DNA of 32,284 bases from an uncultured Verrucomicrobiota bacterium. Its GTDB lineage: Bacteria; Verrucomicrobiota; Verrucomicrobiia; Limisphaerales; UBA9464. A model generated the notes under the pieces. It was given only the letters and a program-made list of their open reading frames with translations, was not told where the DNA came from and did no database searches. Location of the stretch: contig CAIMMI010000265.1 of the NCBI GenBank assembly GCA_903842505.1, forward strand, positions 1-32,284. The letters run 5' to 3'. Below, piece by piece: positions 25,547-31,777 of the stretch (position 1 is the first letter of the stretch; each line of letters starts with the position of its first letter). The translations under genes were made by a program, and so were the position numbers.

Positions 25547-25867
25547 TCAAGCCTGAGTCAGTGCCATCAGAAAGTCGCGGAGCGCCGAGACCATTTGGGA
25601 CAAGGGCAGCTTGAACCAGTCGTCACTTTCGAGGGTTGCTTGCGTTGGTTTGCCTGGTCTGAGCACGGAACCCATGGCGTGGAGAAGCGACTGCCGAAGG
25701 ATAAACAGGTGCAAGCGCTGCGGGCGGGATTTATGATCGCGTTCGATTTGCGGTACCAAATGCCAAGCCAACAACCCATTGCCGGCGGGTCGGATCGTTC
25801 CCAACAGGCGAGTTCGATCGTGGCCGATTCTGGGGTGGGTGGCATGCGAAGGGGCTGAAGATGCCAA
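25547..25867 (-). CDS. Doubtful small ORF or gene remnant at the edge of the restriction island
   Basis: An open frame of up to 106 codons with a TTG at its 5' end, overlapping the hsdR start by seven bases. I do not recognise it. The last third, including ESDDWFKLPLSQMVSALRDF, looks like real protein and has mostly G or C in third positions. The middle (LLAWHLVPQIERDHKSRPQR) is plausible too, while the start is poor. It could be the remains of a gene cut when the restriction island inserted, or chance. No ribosome-binding site was found. Confidence 0.3.
   Translation of the reverse strand: MASSAPSHATHPRIGHDRTRLLGTIRPAGNGLLAWHLVPQIERDHKSRPQRLHLFILRQSLLHAMGSVLRPGKPTQATLESDDWFKLPLSQMVSALRDFLMALTQA
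25848..25854 (+). promoter_or_regulatory. Ribosome-binding site of hsdR
   Basis: GAAGGGG lies six bases before ATG 25861 and decides that start. Confidence 0.65.
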
Positions 25868-28248
25868 CGGAAGCGGATACCTGCCGACTCCTGGTCACAC
25901 CCAAGCTTCAATCAGCTGGGTGGGACAACGCTCCGCACTCCATTGCGGAGCAGCGGACGTTCACCGATGGACGGATAGTGGTTCGAGGTACTCGGGCCAG
26001 TCGTCGGCCCGCGAAGCGCGCTGATTACCTGCTCCGGTACACGCGGGATTTCCCGATTGCGGTGGTGGAGGCCAAGGCCGAGCACCTGCCGGCGGCCACG
26101 GGGATGCAGCAGGCAAAGGACTACGCGCAGATCCTTGGACTCCAGTTTGCCTATGCCACGAACGGTCAGGAGATCCTGGAGTTCGACTTCCTTACGGGGT
26201 GCGAGCGCTCCATCGCCGGCTTCCCTACCCCGAGGGAGTTGTGGGCGCGTCTTCCGGTTCCGGCCGGGCTCAGTTCTGCCACGGCGGATCATCTGCTGGC
26301 GCCGTTCAACCTGAGTGCAGGGAAGGAACCGAGGTACTATCAGGTCATCGCGATCGATCGGTCGATCGAGGCCATCCTGCAGGGACGGAGGCGCGTCCTG
26401 CTGACCATGGCGACCGGCACAGGCAAGACTGTGGTGGCATTCCAGATCTGCTGGAAGCTTTGGTCCTCCCGGTGGAACGCGAAAGGTGACCCCACCCGCA
26501 AACCCCGGATCCTTTACCTGGCTGACCGCAACTTCCTGGTGGACGATCCGAAGGACAAGACCTTCTCCGTGTTTGGTGATGCCCGCTACAAGATCGAGGG
26601 AGGTGAGGTCACTCATGGCAGGGAGGTCTACTTCGCGACCTACCAGTCGATCGCCGAGGACAAGAACCGCCCCGGGCTCTACAGGCAGTTCGCTCCCGAT
26701 TTCTTCGACCTGATCATCGTGGACGAGTGCCATCGGGGAAGTGCGAAGGATGGATCCAACTGGCGTGAGATCCTTGAGTACTTCTCTCCGGCTTATCAGT
26801 TGGGGATGACGGCGACGCCAAAGCGGGACGAAAACCGCGACACCTACCTGTACTTCGGCAACCCGGTCTATCAGTACAGCCTCAAGCAGGGCATCGATGA
26901 TGGCTTCCTCGCGCCGTATCGGGTGCATCGTATTGTCACCCAGTGGGACGCCGCGGGCTGGCGTCCCAGCAAGGATGACCTCGACCGCTACGGCAGGCAG
27001 ATTCCAGACGAGGTCTACGTTACGGGTGACTTCGAACGTAGGGTGGCGCTCCGTGCGCGGACGCAGGCTGTGGCGCGTCACCTGACCGACTTCCTCAAGA
27101 AGTCCGATCGCTTCGCCAAGACGATTGTCTTCTGTGTCGACCAGGAGCACGCCTCGGAAATGCGTATCGCCCTCAACAACCTGAATGCCGACCTGGTCCG
27201 AAGCCATCCGGACTACGTGTGCCGTGTGACTGCGGACGAGGGCGACGTAGGGCGCGGGCACATGCAGCGGTTCCAGGATCCCGAAACGCGGACGCCCGTT
27301 ATCCTCACCACGTCCCAGTTGCTGACCACCGGACTTGACGCGCCGACGTGTCGGAATGTCGTGCTCGTGCGGTTGGTCAACTCGATGGTCGAGTTCAAGC
27401 AGATCATCGGGCGGGGCACCCGGGTGCGGGACGAGTACGGCAAGCTGTGGTTCAACATCCTCGACTACACGGGGACGGCCACGAGGAACTTTGCGGACAC
27501 CGCCTTCGATGGGGATCCCGCCTTCGCGACGCAGGAAGAGATCGATGAGCACGGCAGGACCCGAGACACCGAGGTGGTCACTCCCGAGGAGCGGGATGAT
27601 GACGATGCCAGTGCAAACGATCCTTCCCATGGCCAGGGTGGAGGTGGGCGGCTGGTTGATGGACCGTCGACCGCGGCTCGCAAGTTCTACTTCGACGGCG
27701 GTCATGTGGAGATTGCTGCCGAGCTCGTCCACGAACTGGACGCGGACGGCAATCAGCTCCGAGTGGTGAAGCTGACGGAGTACACCGCGGAAAAGGTCCG
27801 GACCCTCTGCACGGGTGCGGAAGACCTGCGTGCCCGGTGGGCTGATGCCGGGCAACGAGGAGAGATCCTCCAGCAGTTGGCCGAGCGCGGGATCGACTTT
27901 GCCTCGGTGGCTGCGCAGGCCGGCCAACCCGATGCCGATCCCTTCGATCTCCTCTGTCATTGCGCCTTCCAGGCACCGCTCCTCACGCGGCGGCAGCGCG
28001 CGAATCGGGCGAAGGCAAGGCAGGCGGCGATGTTTGATTACCTGCGGCCGGAAGCCCGGGAGATCCTGAGTGAACTCGTTGAGAAGTATGCTGCCGACGG
28101 CGAATTGCAGTTTGTCCTGCCGGATGTCCTGAAGATTTCCCCGATCTCGCGTCACGGATCGGTGGGCGAGATCGTGAACGTGTTCGGCGGGCCGGACGAG
28201 TTGCGAACGGCAGTCCACCGGTTGCAGGAGCTGTTGTATGCCCCCTGA
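25861..28248 (+). CDS. hsdR: Type I restriction enzyme, restriction/translocase subunit HsdR
   Basis: A 795-residue subunit that cuts foreign DNA after ATP-driven translocation. The nuclease centre is Asp55 in KRADYLL and E70-x-K72 in VVEAKAE. The helicase part shows Walker A MATGTGKT (183-190), motif II VDECHRGS (DECH at 288-291), motif III GMTATP (about 315-320) and motif VI QIIGRGTRVR (514-523). An acidic, low-complexity stretch (RDDDDASANDPSHGQGGGGR) lies near residue 585, before the C-terminal domain that holds the complex together. It is the first gene of the island, and its last 11 bases overlap the zeta-like kinase gene. All motifs are intact, so the enzyme is probably active. Confidence 0.92.
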   Translation: MPTEADTCRLLVTPKLQSAGWDNAPHSIAEQRTFTDGRIVVRGTRASRRPAKRADYLLRYTRDFPIAVVEAKAEHLPAATGMQQAKDYAQILGLQFAYATNGQEILEFDFLTGCERSIAGFPTPRELWARLPVPAGLSSATADHLLAPFNLSAGKEPRYYQVIAIDRSIEAILQGRRRVLLTMATGTGKTVVAFQICWKLWSSRWNAKGDPTRKPRILYLADRNFLVDDPKDKTFSVFGDARYKIEGGEVTHGREVYFATYQSIAEDKNRPGLYRQFAPDFFDLIIVDECHRGSAKDGSNWREILEYFSPAYQLGMTATPKRDENRDTYLYFGNPVYQYSLKQGIDDGFLAPYRVHRIVTQWDAAGWRPSKDDLDRYGRQIPDEVYVTGDFERRVALRARTQAVARHLTDFLKKSDRFAKTIVFCVDQEHASEMRIALNNLNADLVRSHPDYVCRVTADEGDVGRGHMQRFQDPETRTPVILTTSQLLTTGLDAPTCRNVVLVRLVNSMVEFKQIIGRGTRVRDEYGKLWFNILDYTGTATRNFADTAFDGDPAFATQEEIDEHGRTRDTEVVTPEERDDDDASANDPSHGQGGGGRLVDGPSTAARKFYFDGGHVEIAAELVHELDADGNQLRVVKLTEYTAEKVRTLCTGAEDLRARWADAGQRGEILQQLAERGIDFASVAAQAGQPDADPFDLLCHCAFQAPLLTRRQRANRAKARQAAMFDYLRPEAREILSELVEKYAADGELQFVLPDVLKISPISRHGSVGEIVNVFGGPDELRTAVHRLQELLYAP

Positions 28249-28822
28249 TTGCGGGCGGTGCTACATCATCGCCGGACCCAACGGGGCGGGGAAGACCACC
28301 TTCGCCATGGAGTTCCTGCCGCTGTATGCGCAGTGCCGGAACTTCATCAATCCGGACCTCCTGGCCCGGGCCTATTCGCCCTTCGACCCGGATGCTGGGC
28401 TCTTTCGTGCCGGGCGGACGGTGCTGGAACGGATCGCAGAGTTCACGGAGGCGCAGAAGGATTTTGCCTTCGAGACGACGCTGTCGGGGCGTGGCTATGT
28501 ACCCGTGCTGCGGCGAGTCAAGGAGGCGGGCTTCCAACTTCACCTGTTCTACCTGTGGCTGCCCAGTCCGGAGCTGGCGCTGATGCGGATCCGCGACCGG
28601 GTTGAGGCCGGAGGACACAACGTGCCGGAACGCGATGTCCGGAGACGCTTCGAGCGGACGATCGGCAATCTGTTCTCGCTGTACCACCCGTTGCTCGACA
28701 CCCTTCATTTCTTCGATAACTCCTCTTCGAGACCGCGGTTGATTTTCAAGGAGGAGGCGGGCCGGTTGACCATTCTGGAACCCGTCCTTTACGAGACCCT
28801 GCGAAAGCACATTGCGCCATGA
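28238..28822 (+). CDS. Zeta-toxin-like P-loop kinase
   Basis: A 194-residue AAA/P-loop protein related to zeta toxins, which phosphorylate UDP-GlcNAc and block cell-wall synthesis. Walker A is AGPNGAGKTT (12-21). FINPDLLARAY (36-46) follows, then FETTLSGRGY (78-87), which resembles the zeta substrate segment, and RVEAGGHNVPERDVRRRF (121-138), a conserved Arg-rich lid of this group. The gene overlaps the end of hsdR by 11 bases and its stop overlaps the following small gene (ATGA). Whether it is toxic, and on which substrate, cannot be told. The position inside the hsd operon suggests a plasmid- or island-maintenance role. Confidence 0.78.
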   Translation: MPPDCGRCYIIAGPNGAGKTTFAMEFLPLYAQCRNFINPDLLARAYSPFDPDAGLFRAGRTVLERIAEFTEAQKDFAFETTLSGRGYVPVLRRVKEAGFQLHLFYLWLPSPELALMRIRDRVEAGGHNVPERDVRRRFERTIGNLFSLYHPLLDTLHFFDNSSSRPRLIFKEEAGRLTILEPVLYETLRKHIAP

Positions 28823-29031
28823 GCACCCCGGAAACGCCCAGCCTGACGGATCAGGCGATGGAAGCCCTCGCCAATGCGGTGGCCAAGGTCGTCGACGAAC
28901 ATCGGCGTCAGGGCAGACCCTTGGCGGTCTGGCATGAGGGAAAGGCCGTCTGGGTTGCTGCTCCAGAGTTGGGTGCGTTGCAGGAAGCCGCCGTACCCTG
29001 GCGGCCGTCTGGCGTGGAACCGCGGCCCTGA
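28819..29031 (+). CDS. Small protein paired with the zeta-like kinase, candidate antitoxin
   Basis: A 70-residue protein. The core ALANAVAKVVDEHRRQGRPL, followed by AVWHEGKAVWVAAPE, has a helix-turn-strand pattern. I have the impression that similar short proteins occur beside zeta-like ATPases, but I cannot name a family. Its ATG overlaps the kinase stop by four bases (ATGA), so the two are made together. It ends 17 bases before hsdM. Antitoxin function is an inference from size, coupling and partner. Confidence 0.65.
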   Translation: MSTPETPSLTDQAMEALANAVAKVVDEHRRQGRPLAVWHEGKAVWVAAPELGALQEAAVPWRPSGVEPRP

Positions 29032-29048: not shown

Positions 29049-30578
29049 ATGTCCTCCCCCACCACTGCCCAATCCCTCGGCGCCCTTCTCAAGTCCGCAC
29101 GCGACATCATGCGGAAGGACAAGGGGCTGAACGGCGACCTCGACCGGTTGCCGATGCTGACCTGGATCATGTTCCTGAAGTTCCTCGACGATCTGGAGCT
29201 CCAGCGGGAAGGCGAGGCAAAGCTGGCCGGGAAGAAGTTCAAGCCAGCCATCGAGCCTCCTTACCGATGGCGGGACTGGGCCGCCCGTTCCGACGGGATC
29301 ACTGGCGATGAATTGTTGAGCTTCATCAACAACGAGGAGGCCACACGGCCGGACGGTACGCGCGGCGCAGGCCTGTTCCGATACCTCCGGACGCTGGCCA
29401 GCGTCACCGGCGATGACCGCCGCGATGTCATCGCCACCGTGTTCAAGGGTGTCGACAGCCGCATGAGGAGTGGTTACCTGCTGCGCGATGTCATCAACAA
29501 GATCGCCGGCATCCATTTCACCGCGAGTGAGGAGTTGCACACCTTGGGTGCGCTGTACGAGTCGATGCTCCGCGAGATGCGGGATGCGGCGGGTGATTCG
29601 GGTGAGTTCTACACCCCGCGGCCCGTGGTCCGGTTCATGGTGACGGTCACCGACCCGCGACTCGGGGAAGTGCTTCTGGATCCGGCCGGTGGCACCGGAG
29701 GCTTCCTGGTCGAGGGCTACCAGCATCTGGCGAAGCAGGTGAAGACAGTCGCGGATCGCCGGGTGCTCCAGGAACGATCGATCCTCGGATGCGAGCCCAA
29801 GCCCCTGCCGTACCTGCTGTGCCAGATGAACCTGCTCCTGCACGGGCTCGACGCGCCGCAGATCGATCCCGGCAATGCCCTCCGGCACAAGCTGACGGAT
29901 ATCGGTGAGCGCGACCGCGTGGATGTGATCGTCACCAACCCACCGTTTGGCGGGGAGGAGGAGAAGGGAATCCAGGGCAACTTCCCGGGCGACCGGCAGA
30001 CGGCCGAGACCGCCCTGCTGTTCCTTCAGTTGATCATGCGGAAGCTGCGCCGATCCCCCACCGCCGCCGGCAGGACCGCACGGGCGGCTGTCGTGGTTCC
30101 CAACGGCACCCTGTTCGGGGACGGCGTCTGCGCTCGGATCAAGGAGGACCTGCTCCGCGAGTTCAACCTGCACACCATCGTGCGGCTCCCCAACGGCGTC
30201 TTCGCCCCCTACACCAGCATTCCCACCAATCTTCTCTTCTTCGATCGCTCGGGTCCGACCCGCGAGGTCTGGTACTATGAGCAACCGCTCCCGGAGGGAC
30301 GGAAGAACTACACCAAGACCGCTCCCATCCAGTTCGAGGAGTTCGCCGGGCTCCTCGACTGGTGGAACCAACGGACGGAGAACGAACGCGCCTGGAAGGT
30401 CCCTGCTGCCGACCTCCTCGCCAACGGCTGCAACCTCGACCGCAAGAACCCGCACGCCAAGGAGGACATCGCCCACCTGCCTCCCGAACAGATCGCCGCC
30501 GGCATCCTCCTGAAGGAACGCCGCATCGCGGAGATCATGGGCAACATCCAGAAACTCCTCGCGAAGACCGGCAAATGA
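29049..30578 (+). CDS. hsdM: Type I restriction-modification N6-adenine methyltransferase HsdM
   Basis: A 509-residue modification subunit that methylates adenine in the target site so that the host DNA is not cut. An N-terminal helical domain (about 1-160, LTWIMFLKFLDDLELQRE) is followed by GEFYTPRPVVRFM (about 185-197). The SAM-binding motif I is LLDPAGGTGGFLVEGY (about 209-224) and the catalytic motif IV is VTNPPFGG (295-302). The C-terminal region contacts HsdS. Its stop overlaps the hsdS ATG (ATGA). The ribosome-binding site is weak. Confidence 0.92.
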   Translation: MSSPTTAQSLGALLKSARDIMRKDKGLNGDLDRLPMLTWIMFLKFLDDLELQREGEAKLAGKKFKPAIEPPYRWRDWAARSDGITGDELLSFINNEEATRPDGTRGAGLFRYLRTLASVTGDDRRDVIATVFKGVDSRMRSGYLLRDVINKIAGIHFTASEELHTLGALYESMLREMRDAAGDSGEFYTPRPVVRFMVTVTDPRLGEVLLDPAGGTGGFLVEGYQHLAKQVKTVADRRVLQERSILGCEPKPLPYLLCQMNLLLHGLDAPQIDPGNALRHKLTDIGERDRVDVIVTNPPFGGEEEKGIQGNFPGDRQTAETALLFLQLIMRKLRRSPTAAGRTARAAVVVPNGTLFGDGVCARIKEDLLREFNLHTIVRLPNGVFAPYTSIPTNLLFFDRSGPTREVWYYEQPLPEGRKNYTKTAPIQFEEFAGLLDWWNQRTENERAWKVPAADLLANGCNLDRKNPHAKEDIAHLPPEQIAAGILLKERRIAEIMGNIQKLLAKTGK

Positions 30579-31777
30579 ACTCGTGGCCAAGGGTTAGGCT
30601 GGGGGAGGTGCTGGAGCACCGGAAGCAGTTTGTTACTATCGATGATCTAACAATCTACAGGCGGCCACGGGTCCAGTTGCATGCACAAGGCATCGTCTTA
30701 AGGGATGAGGTGCCTGGTGCGCTCATTAAGACCAAGGCTCAGCAGGTTTGCCGATACGGTGAATTCCTGGTCGCTGAGATCGACGCCAAGGTTGGTGGTT
30801 TTGGTATCGTGCCGGAGTCGATGGACGGATCCATCGTGAGCAGCCACTACTTCCTTTTCGTGGTGGACGAATCGAAGCTCGATCGCCGCTTCCTGAGCTA
30901 TTTCATCCGGACCCGTTTTTTTCGCGACCAAGTGTCGGCTAAGGGCTCTACCAACTACTCGGCGATTCGTCCGGCCCATGTCCTGGCCTACCAAATCCCC
31001 CTCCCCCCCCTGGCGGAGCAGCGGCGGGTGGTGGCTCGGATCGAGGAGTTGGCCGCCCAGATCGAGGAGGCGAGACGTCTTCGTCTGGAAGCCGTGGAGG
31101 AGGGGGAGGGGTTGATGGTCGCTTACACCACAAGAGCGATTGGGAGATTGCTCGACGGTGGGTGTCAACCGCTGGAGACCCTCGGTATCGGGGGAGCCAA
31201 TCCAATCCAGATCGGGCCCTTTGGAGCTCAGCTGCAAAGTGCCGAATTCGTAGCGGAAGGGGTTCCGGTCTTGAATGTCGGAAACGTGTGGCCCGATGGC
31301 CTTCGTTTAGATCGCCTGACCTTCGTCACTGAGGAGAAGGCGCATCAACTTCGTCGCTACTCTGTTAAGGCAGGGGACCTCTTGTTCGCTCGGTCTGGCG
31401 CGACGCTTGGCAAAGTTTGCCTGGTCCCAGTTCGATGTGAATCATGGCTGATGACTGGCCATCTCTTTCGTGTGCGATTCGATCCCGCGAGGGTTTTCAA
31501 CAGATTTGCTTTTGGGGCGCTTCGCGGATCTCTCCAGATTCAAGAGCAAGTCTTTGGGCAGATTCGAGGAGCCACGCGCCCTGGGTACAACACGACGCTA
31601 CTTGGGAATGTGCGACTACCCATCCCCCCACTCCCTGAACAGCGCCGAATCGTCGCTGAGTTGGATGCGTTGCAGTCCCAAGTCGACTCCCTGAAGCGGT
31701 TGCAGGGGGAGACGGAAGCGGAGTTGGAGGCGTTGCTTCCTGCGATCTTGGACCGGGCATTTCGTGGGGAGTTGTGA
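30575..31777 (+). CDS. hsdS: Type I restriction-modification specificity subunit HsdS
   Basis: A 400-residue subunit that sets the DNA target of the complex. Two target-recognition domains (about 1-140 and 195-345) alternate with conserved helical repeats. The first conserved region is IPLPPLAEQRRVVARIEEL (141-159), continuing to about 180. The second is LPIPPLPEQRRIVAELDAL (348-366), continuing to about 390. The two target-recognition domains are unlike each other, so the site is bipartite. Translation starts by overlap with the hsdM stop (ATGA). Base composition is lower in GC than the neighbours, especially in domain one and the second half, as expected for exchangeable recognition domains. 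A C8 run sits in the first conserved region. Confidence 0.9.
   Translation: MNSWPRVRLGEVLEHRKQFVTIDDLTIYRRPRVQLHAQGIVLRDEVPGALIKTKAQQVCRYGEFLVAEIDAKVGGFGIVPESMDGSIVSSHYFLFVVDESKLDRRFLSYFIRTRFFRDQVSAKGSTNYSAIRPAHVLAYQIPLPPLAEQRRVVARIEELAAQIEEARRLRLEAVEEGEGLMVAYTTRAIGRLLDGGCQPLETLGIGGANPIQIGPFGAQLQSAEFVAEGVPVLNVGNVWPDGLRLDRLTFVTEEKAHQLRRYSVKAGDLLFARSGATLGKVCLVPVRCESWLMTGHLFRVRFDPARVFNRFAFGALRGSLQIQEQVFGQIRGATRPGYNTTLLGNVRLPIPPLPEQRRIVAELDALQSQVDSLKRLQGETEAELEALLPAILDRAFRGEL
31003..31010 (+). repeat. C8 homopolymer inside hsdS
   Basis: A run of eight C residues, preceded by five C and a T, encodes the Leu-Pro-Pro-Leu of the conserved PLPPLAEQ segment between the two target-recognition domains. 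A change of one base would stop or garble the protein after domain one. Confidence 0.85.

What the first reader, a model, noticed from the sequence alone, without database searches (positions are those of the whole stretch)
28238..29031. Zeta-like kinase and small protein nested in a type I restriction operon
Between hsdR and hsdM sit a P-loop kinase with zeta-toxin features and a 70-residue protein, joined by overlaps (11 bases to hsdR, 4 bases to each other). Such tight coupling implies joint control. The pair could punish loss of the restriction island, act as a back-up abortive defence when restriction fails, or regulate restriction. The small protein belongs to no family I can name.
Basis: partly seen in the sequence, partly recalled or inferred. 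Interest (0 to 1): 0.66.

Follow-up and report, generated by a model that had tools for sequence, protein, structure and literature searches.

The report
Kinase pair embedded in restriction operons
Between two genes of a bacterial DNA-defence operon sits a two-gene module that looks like a toxin and its inhibitor; the same module recurs inside other kinds of restriction operon, in a spot where related bacteria often swap extra defence-like genes.

Summary
hsdR (25861-28248), a 194-aa zeta-like kinase (28238-28822), a 70-aa protein (28819-29031), hsdM (29049-30578) and hsdS (30575-31777) form one tight operon. The kinase passes Pfam Zeta_toxin; its confident model is nearest to PezT, AvrRxo1 and zeta. 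The small protein matches no usable family but goes with the kinase: 69 of 80 homologous loci carry it just downstream, and 3 more have it clearly fused to the kinase C-terminus. The pair is common (kinase in 98 of 288 genomes of the phylum) and mostly NOT beside hsd genes. Still, the same order occurs in one more genome (L050) and, rearranged, in L035; type III mod|res (L045) and SNF2-helicase|IIG-like-methylase (L042) loci carry it too. In 15 of 34 hsdR-hsdM operons, cargo genes sit in this slot, differing between close relatives. Best reading: a toxin-first, toxin-antitoxin-like module carried as cargo in restriction operons. Toxicity, neutralisation and target are inferred. A new variant of known embedded TA/RM arrangements.

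The parts
25861..28248 (+). hsdR, EcoAI/FtnUII-type restriction subunit, 795 aa, full length
   Evidence: NF046051 1016.7 bits over profile positions 2-767 of 768; PADLOC REase_I 714.9 bits
28226..28230 (+). AGGAG inside the hsdR 3' end, 7 bases before the kinase ATG: possible ribosome-binding site
   Evidence: sequence; function inferred
28238..28822 (+). zeta-like P-loop kinase, 194 aa; Walker A residues 13-20; D40, E79-T80-T81, R117, R121, R136, R137 invariant in an alignment of 14 sequences, the window's included
   Evidence: Pfam Zeta_toxin over cut-off; alignment A1; model pLDDT 90.4, pTM 0.87; Foldseek/VIA matches
28819..29031 (+). small partner protein, 70 aa, predicted long helix, beta hairpin, short helix; candidate antitoxin/inhibitor
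   Evidence: partner profile, 69 of 80 loci; natural C-terminal fusions; model pLDDT 73.5
29049..30578 (+). hsdM, type I methylase subunit, 509 aa
   Evidence: N6_Mtase 195.3 bits, HsdM_N 32.4 bits; PADLOC MTase_I 639.6 bits
30575..31777 (+). hsdS, type I specificity subunit, 4-base overlap with hsdM
   Evidence: Methylase_S 69 bits, two stretches (the scanned stretch began five codons upstream, at 30560)

Best explanation
A two-gene toxin-antitoxin-like module sits as cargo in the hsdR|hsdM junction of a type I restriction operon. Shown: kinase and small protein are a conserved, usually overlapping, sometimes fused pair; the kinase is predicted to have the zeta/PezT/AvrRxo1-like fold with an intact P-loop and conserved acidic and basic residues; homologous pairs occur without detected Hsd genes and, repeatedly, inside restriction operons; the slot carries other, often defence-like cargo in related operons. 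Inferred: the kinase, when free, phosphorylates a small molecule (possibly not UDP-GlcNAc) and stops growth; the small protein, made from the next overlapping frame, binds and silences it; the pair, transcribed with hsd, both penalises loss of the operon and can act as second-line abortive defence when phage disturbs host expression.
For: Pair: 69 of 80 loci have a separate downstream partner (66 of those 69 longest frames start before the end of the kinase stop; commonest overlaps 4, 8, 11 bases); 3 have it fused at E<1e-3 (L065, L094, L100) and 3 weakly (L096, L098, L101); of the 5 left, 4 hold a partner-like stretch downstream when frames are read through (L037, L056, L104, L044), 1 none (L107). 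Searching with the small family alone, 57 of 70 matches in the same 288 genomes lie within 1.5 kb of a kinase match. In one Paenibacillus plasmid a partner-like gene lies upstream of the kinase (E 1e-7), as if order were free. Fold: Foldseek ranks PezT, AvrRxo1 and zeta first (E 2.6e-8 to 9.7e-7). Recurrent embedding: type I hsdR|hsdM (window, L050, and rearranged L035); after hsdS and a nucleotidyltransferase gene on pSYSG (L031, followed by DarT and a macro-domain gene); type III mod|res with three 4-base ATGA junctions (L045); SNF2-PLD helicase|IIG-like methylase (L042). In L035 kinase and partner frames are intact while hsdR lacks the stretch matching residues 451-587.
Against: No experiment shows toxicity or neutralisation for this family; I found none in the searched library. 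The small-protein model is of middling confidence and resembles no known antitoxin. 13 of 70 small matches have no kinase hit nearby; of 9 of these 13 fetched, 2 hold kinase remnants and 7 none. Among more distant zeta-family kinases on plasmids the partner profile matched a tested neighbour in 6 of 14 records opened, Agrobacterium borderline besides. Most pairs show no Hsd genes, so the link may be passive, and I ran no enrichment control. Bacterial polynucleotide kinases score at least as high as zeta in VIA-align.
Confidence: 0.62

Rival explanations
1. Guardian of restriction: the pair senses inhibition or loss of the Hsd complex (as PrrC does for EcoprrI) and then arrests the cell; contact with HsdR or HsdM keeps it silent.
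For: Embedding in three kinds of restriction operon with overlapping or nearly overlapping junctions. Precedents: PrrC embedded in ecoprrI and DarTG2 embedded between hsdS and hsdR (passages of PMC12707154 and PMC12255303).
Against: The pair occurs without detected Hsd genes in most loci, so it need not depend on Hsd to stay silent; close hsd relatives carry other cargo or none.
Confidence: 0.15
2. Nucleic-acid end-healing kinase with a small accessory subunit, repairing breaks made by restriction or phage.
For: Bacterial polynucleotide kinases lead VIA-align (Z 16.6, rmsd 2.9, 158 aligned, against Z 15.4, rmsd 2.9, 177 aligned for zeta); among the PDB profile matches Pnkp1 spans most of the kinase (positions 5-137, E 5e-4).
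Against: Foldseek ranks PezT, AvrRxo1 and zeta above PNK, and the zeta, PezT and AvrRxo1 alignments reach the C-terminal helix while the bacterial PNK ones end near residue 170; occurrence on plasmids and chromosomes with a free or fused small partner looks TA-like.
Confidence: 0.13
3. Regulator of restriction: the pair sets the level of HsdR against HsdM/HsdS by translation coupling or by acting on Hsd proteins.
For: It sits where hsdM otherwise starts: in operons without cargo the estimated hsdR-hsdM gap is -22 to 111 bases.
Against: Unrelated cargo fills the same slot in other operons and most pairs show no Hsd genes.
Confidence: 0.06

Closest known systems
epsilon/zeta and PezAT toxin-antitoxin systems
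   Same: predicted kinase fold, P-loop, small partner in the same operon
   Different: partner is downstream and not recognised as epsilon; zeta signature weak (29.7 bits); substrate unknown
AvrRxo1:Arc1 (zeta-like kinase, partner gene downstream)
   Same: toxin-first order (passages of PMC4938570), kinase fold over the model's whole length (VIA Z 14.3, rmsd 3.5, 191 aligned), small downstream partner
   Different: 194-aa kinase instead of a longer secreted effector; partner not matched to Arc1 by sequence profile; not compared further
EzeT (zeta fused to its inhibitor)
   Same: natural kinase-partner fusions in relatives
   Different: there the inhibitory domain is N-terminal (passage in PMC4963859); here it is C-terminal in relatives and a separate protein in the window
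DarTG2 embedded in a type I RM operon of E. coli (RptR island)
   Same: TA module embedded in hsd genes; authors speak of a potential hotspot for defence systems (passages, PMC12255303)
   Different: other toxin, slot between hsdS and hsdR; here a kinase pair between hsdR and hsdM, and homologous pairs in type III and IIG-like operons
Homologous pair on Synechocystis plasmid pSYSG (SGL_RS01145/SGL_RS01140)
   Same: pair downstream of hsdS and a nucleotidyltransferase gene; I take it to be sll8004/ssl8003 from gene order, which no call states
   Different: PMC4963859 lists sll8004 and ssl8003 only among five TA-related genes that missed the authors' criteria (passage)

Membership tests
zeta-toxin-like kinases | Pfam Zeta_toxin over gathering score | tested here: met
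   29.7 bits, cut-off 22.3
zeta-toxin-like kinases | fold of zeta/PezT with the P-loop and conserved acidic/basic residues | tested here: met
   on the predicted model:
zeta-toxin-like kinases | UDP-GlcNAc 3'-kinase activity | not testable with these tools
   UDP-GlcNAc contacts given for zeta in a passage of PMC4938570 include R120 and T121; by a motif alignment from memory these are S83 and G84 here, so another substrate is plausible
epsilon/zeta system | epsilon-type antitoxin encoded upstream | tested here: not met
   the upstream neighbour is hsdR and the partner is downstream; no epsilon chain among the 35 PDB matches of the partner profile up to E=10
type II toxin-antitoxin module | two small adjacent, co-conserved genes | tested here: met
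   69 of 80 loci plus fusions; co-transcription inferred from the overlaps
type II toxin-antitoxin module | toxicity and neutralisation | not testable with these tools
   needs expression
type I RM operon (EcoAI-like) | hsdR, hsdM, hsdS full-length, same strand | tested here: met
PrrC-type RM guardian | anticodon nuclease gated by the Hsd complex | not testable with these tools
   the kinase model has a zeta-like fold; gating needs experiments
AvrRxo1:Arc1 | Arc1-type partner | tested here: inconclusive
   no Arc1 chain among the profile matches of A2 up to E=10; no chain with Z>=5 among 471 aligned to the partner model

The most novel reading that the evidence does not exclude
A zeta-like kinase/inhibitor pair is a dedicated second line of several restriction systems: captured independently into type I, type III and IIG-like operons at overlapping or near-overlapping junctions, it is released when phage blocks or removes the restriction enzyme, and the hsdR|hsdM junction is a general loading bay for such back-up systems.
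Probability: 0.2. Interest if true: 0.75.

Novelty: new variant of a known kind. Interest (0 to 1): 0.5.

Why it matters
It gives a concrete, testable pair in which the candidate inhibitor belongs to a family unnamed in the libraries used, and a defined genomic slot (between hsdR and hsdM) where related operons carry different cargo: SIR2-HerA, a GajA/OLD-like ATPase, RhuM-Fic, FRG, DUF3800 and this pair. If the pair proves toxic and neutralised, many proteins now annotated only as 'zeta toxin family protein' or 'AAA family ATPase' gain a partner and a context.

Tried and rejected
Viral relatives: the single-sequence query found none in IMG/VR (a close-relative search) and 4 of 50,697 phage records, so a phage-borne origin has no support here.

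Specific hsd partnership: rejected as a general rule. tblastn with the window's Hsd proteins (E<=1e-4) hit 5 of 80 loci: window, L031, L035, L050, and L045, where the hit is a type III Res. Type II and III genes were not sought in all loci, so embedding in those is a lower bound. In one search, 17 of 71 loci with enough upstream sequence had a same-direction frame of 150 aa or more ending near the kinase start: 6 of the 17 rows are restriction genes (window, L035, L050, L045, and L042/L054, one sequence twice); of the others, L041 (membrane protein DUF2142), L055 (glycine cleavage P protein) and L078 (no match) were scanned, the remaining 8 not.

Partner in more distant zeta-family kinases on plasmids: of 14 records opened, a tested neighbour matched the profile in 6 (Synechocystis, Nostoc, Geminocystis, Parabacteroides and Persephonella downstream; Paenibacillus upstream), Agrobacterium was borderline (E 0.001), 7 gave none; mainly annotated neighbours were tested. 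The upstream small genes of the E. coli, Komagataeibacter and Lactiplantibacillus plasmids are not supported as relatives.

Partner-fold search: best Z 4.5, uninformative. Residue mapping from PMC3062530 failed: none of the residue numbers sought is in its text. NG86 dS is near saturation for four of five pairs; L038/L040 (dS 0.25 kinase, 0.51 small) is the best pair.

Counts and their limits: of 52 hsdR loci at or near the family cut-off that I looked at, 34 were counted as hsdR-then-hsdM; L127 had too little contig and 17 showed no match to the window's HsdM downstream in the fetched stretch (two of them with short stretches). One search scored at most 3 candidates a genome and at most 20, so their tallies are lower bounds. 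L125 has a 238-base gap without a clear gene and is not counted as cargo. The profile behind the 69-of-80 count was seeded with 14 partners and iterated on the same loci; its first pass gave 66 hits at E<1e-3, seeds and fused C-termini included. L042/L054 and L077/L081 have identical kinase cores and L078/L080 identical small proteins, so the 80 loci are slightly fewer independent ones.
Full report
OBSERVATION. The reading frames are as described: hsdR 25861-28248, kinase 28238-28822, small protein 28819-29031, hsdM 29049-30578 and hsdS 30575-31777, all on the + strand. The kinase start lies in the last codons of hsdR with AGGAG seven bases upstream; the small gene starts in an ATGA shared with the kinase stop. 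Pfam Zeta_toxin is reached at 29.7 bits against a cut-off of 22.3. The small protein matches nothing usable in Pfam, NCBIfam, PADLOC or PHROGs. The own genome holds one copy of the kinase at E<=0.001.

THE KINASE. An alignment of 14 sequences, the window's included, shows invariant A12 G13 N15 G16 G18 K19 T20 T21, D40, E79 T80 T81, R117, R121, G125 G126 H127, R136 and R137 among others. The AlphaFold2 model has mean pLDDT 90.4 and pTM 0.87. Foldseek ranks PezT, AvrRxo1 and zeta first. VIA-align gives bacterial polynucleotide kinase Z 16.6 (rmsd 2.9, 158 aligned), zeta 15.4 (2.9, 177) and AvrRxo1 14.3 (3.5, 191). A shared fold shows no function; the substrate is open.

THE PARTNER. A separate downstream partner reaches E<0.01 in 69 of 80. 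Of these 69 longest frames, 66 start before the end of the kinase stop, most often 4 (26), 8 (14) or 11 (8) bases before. Three loci carry it as a C-terminal domain of the kinase at E<1e-3 (L065, L094, L100) and three more weakly (L096, L098, L101; E 0.003-0.015). Of the other five, four hold a partner-like stretch when the frames are read through (L037 where the contig ends, L056 and L104 with interrupted kinases, L044 weakly) and L107 holds none. In the reverse direction, the partner profile alone found 70 matches in 67 of 288 genomes, 57 of them within 1.5 kb of a kinase match. Of the 13 others I fetched 9: 2 hold kinase remnants and 7 none. The partner model (pLDDT 73.5) is a long helix, a beta hairpin and a short helix with no convincing known fold. 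dN/dS is about 0.13-0.33 for the small gene over five pairs. Natural fusion and overlapping genes argue for a physical pair; that is inference.

DISTRIBUTION. 98 of 288 genomes of the phylum match the kinase. On plasmids 579 of 72,556 records match, all below 60% identity. Of 14 such records opened, a tested neighbour matches the partner profile in 6: downstream in Synechocystis, Nostoc, Geminocystis, Parabacteroides and Persephonella, upstream in Paenibacillus. Only 4 of 50,697 phage records match the kinase.

LINK WITH RESTRICTION. Two other loci hold the pair at an EcoAI-type hsdR end, each with an 11-base overlap. L050 (kinase 63% identical in tblastn, HsdR 64%, HsdM 81%, HsdS 39%) has the full order hsdR-kinase-small-hsdM-hsdS. 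L035 (kinase 81%) has hsdR-kinase-small, then a second copy of the last stretch of hsdR (57 of 84 bases alike), a helicase and a DprA-like gene, a 23S_rRNA_IVP gene and hsdM pieces. The repeated hsdR tail looks like a footprint of insertion at the hsdR 3' end; misassembly of this metagenome contig is not excluded. L036 (kinase 76%) has the pair with no Hsd match. On pSYSG the order is hsdS, nucleotidyltransferase, kinase, small, DarT, macro-domain gene. Two further embeddings lie in other systems. In L045 a type III methylase (MTase_III, 748 bits), the kinase, the small gene and a type III restriction subunit (REase_III, 687 bits) are joined by three 4-base overlaps. In L042 (kinase core identical to L054) the pair lies 1 base after a PLD-SNF2 helicase gene and 11 bases before a IIG-like methylase (582 bits). 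Against this, in the 60 genomes with the best kinase matches only G000 and G169 show a listed N6_Mtase gene within 10 kb of a kinase, by my reading; one search does not list the IIG-like methylase beside the G118 pair, looks for no type III methylase, and short contigs hide some. The link is recurrent but uncommon, and I have no enrichment control.

THE SLOT. Of 288 genomes, at least 49 have an EcoAI-type hsdR over the cut-off (at most 3 candidates a genome were scored). Among 52 hsdR loci examined, 34 run hsdR then hsdM. In 18 the estimated gap is 111 bases or less; in 16 it is 238 bases or more, and 15 of these hold at least one gene of 120 aa or more in the gap (13 of the 15 other than this pair; the window is one of the 34). 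Cargo found: RhuM-Fic, FRG, AAA_14-DUF4143, a sub-cut-off DUF6308 match, DUF3800, 23S_rRNA_IVP, Schlafen-AlbA_2/Fic-like, SIR2 with HerA, an OLD/GajA-like ATPase, a PDDEXK_3 protein, and three operons whose cargo had no Pfam match at E<=0.001. In an HsdR tree the window's HsdR is sister to that of L136, which carries the OLD/GajA-like gene instead (support 98/84); kinase-bearing L035 is outside these two, and L131 and L135 of the same six-row clade carry no cargo. The cargo thus seems to change faster than the hsd genes.

MECHANISM. Most likely the kinase is a toxin held by the small protein, and the module gains expression and transmission by riding in a restriction operon. Which role dominates (addiction, back-up abortive defence, guardian of restriction) is not resolved. 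Autonomy is favoured by pairs without Hsd genes and by L035, where both frames of the pair are intact in an operon whose HsdR lacks the stretch matching residues 451-587.

PRIOR WORK (passages seen in each paper, none read whole). DarTG2 embedded between hsdS and hsdR, with the remark that the site may be a hotspot for defence systems, is in PMC12255303. PrrC embedded in ecoprrI is in PMC12707154. TA-related genes of the pSYSG island that missed the criteria are in PMC4963859. AvrRxo1:Arc1 as a toxin-first pair is in PMC4938570. I found no report of a zeta-like pair embedded between hsdR and hsdM in ten library searches, but did not open most of the listed papers, among them the one and the 5. 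Most subscription papers and all bioRxiv preprints are outside the library.

Noticed in passing
L160 (G259:C228), between hsdR and hsdM: A SIR2-HerA pair (PADLOC 447 and 721 bits) sits in the hsdR|hsdM slot of a related operon.
   Followed up: partly
L161 (G238:C92), between hsdR and hsdM: An OLD/GajA-like ATPase-TOPRIM gene stands where the window has the kinase pair, in the operon whose HsdR (L136) is sister to the window's.
   Followed up: partly
L035:6323-6412: The last stretch of hsdR is repeated downstream of the kinase-small pair, and hsdM there appears in pieces around a 23S_rRNA_IVP gene.
   Followed up: partly
L147:552-2302: Two cargo genes (329 and 256 aa) between hsdR and hsdM with no Pfam match.
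   Followed up: no
L171:3790-3987: In a Paenibacillus plasmid a partner-like small gene (E 1e-7) lies upstream of the zeta-family kinase, the reverse order.
   Followed up: partly
L177, L179-L183, L185: Small-family matches with no kinase detected in the fetched stretch: possible solitary partners; some lie near contig ends.
   Followed up: partly
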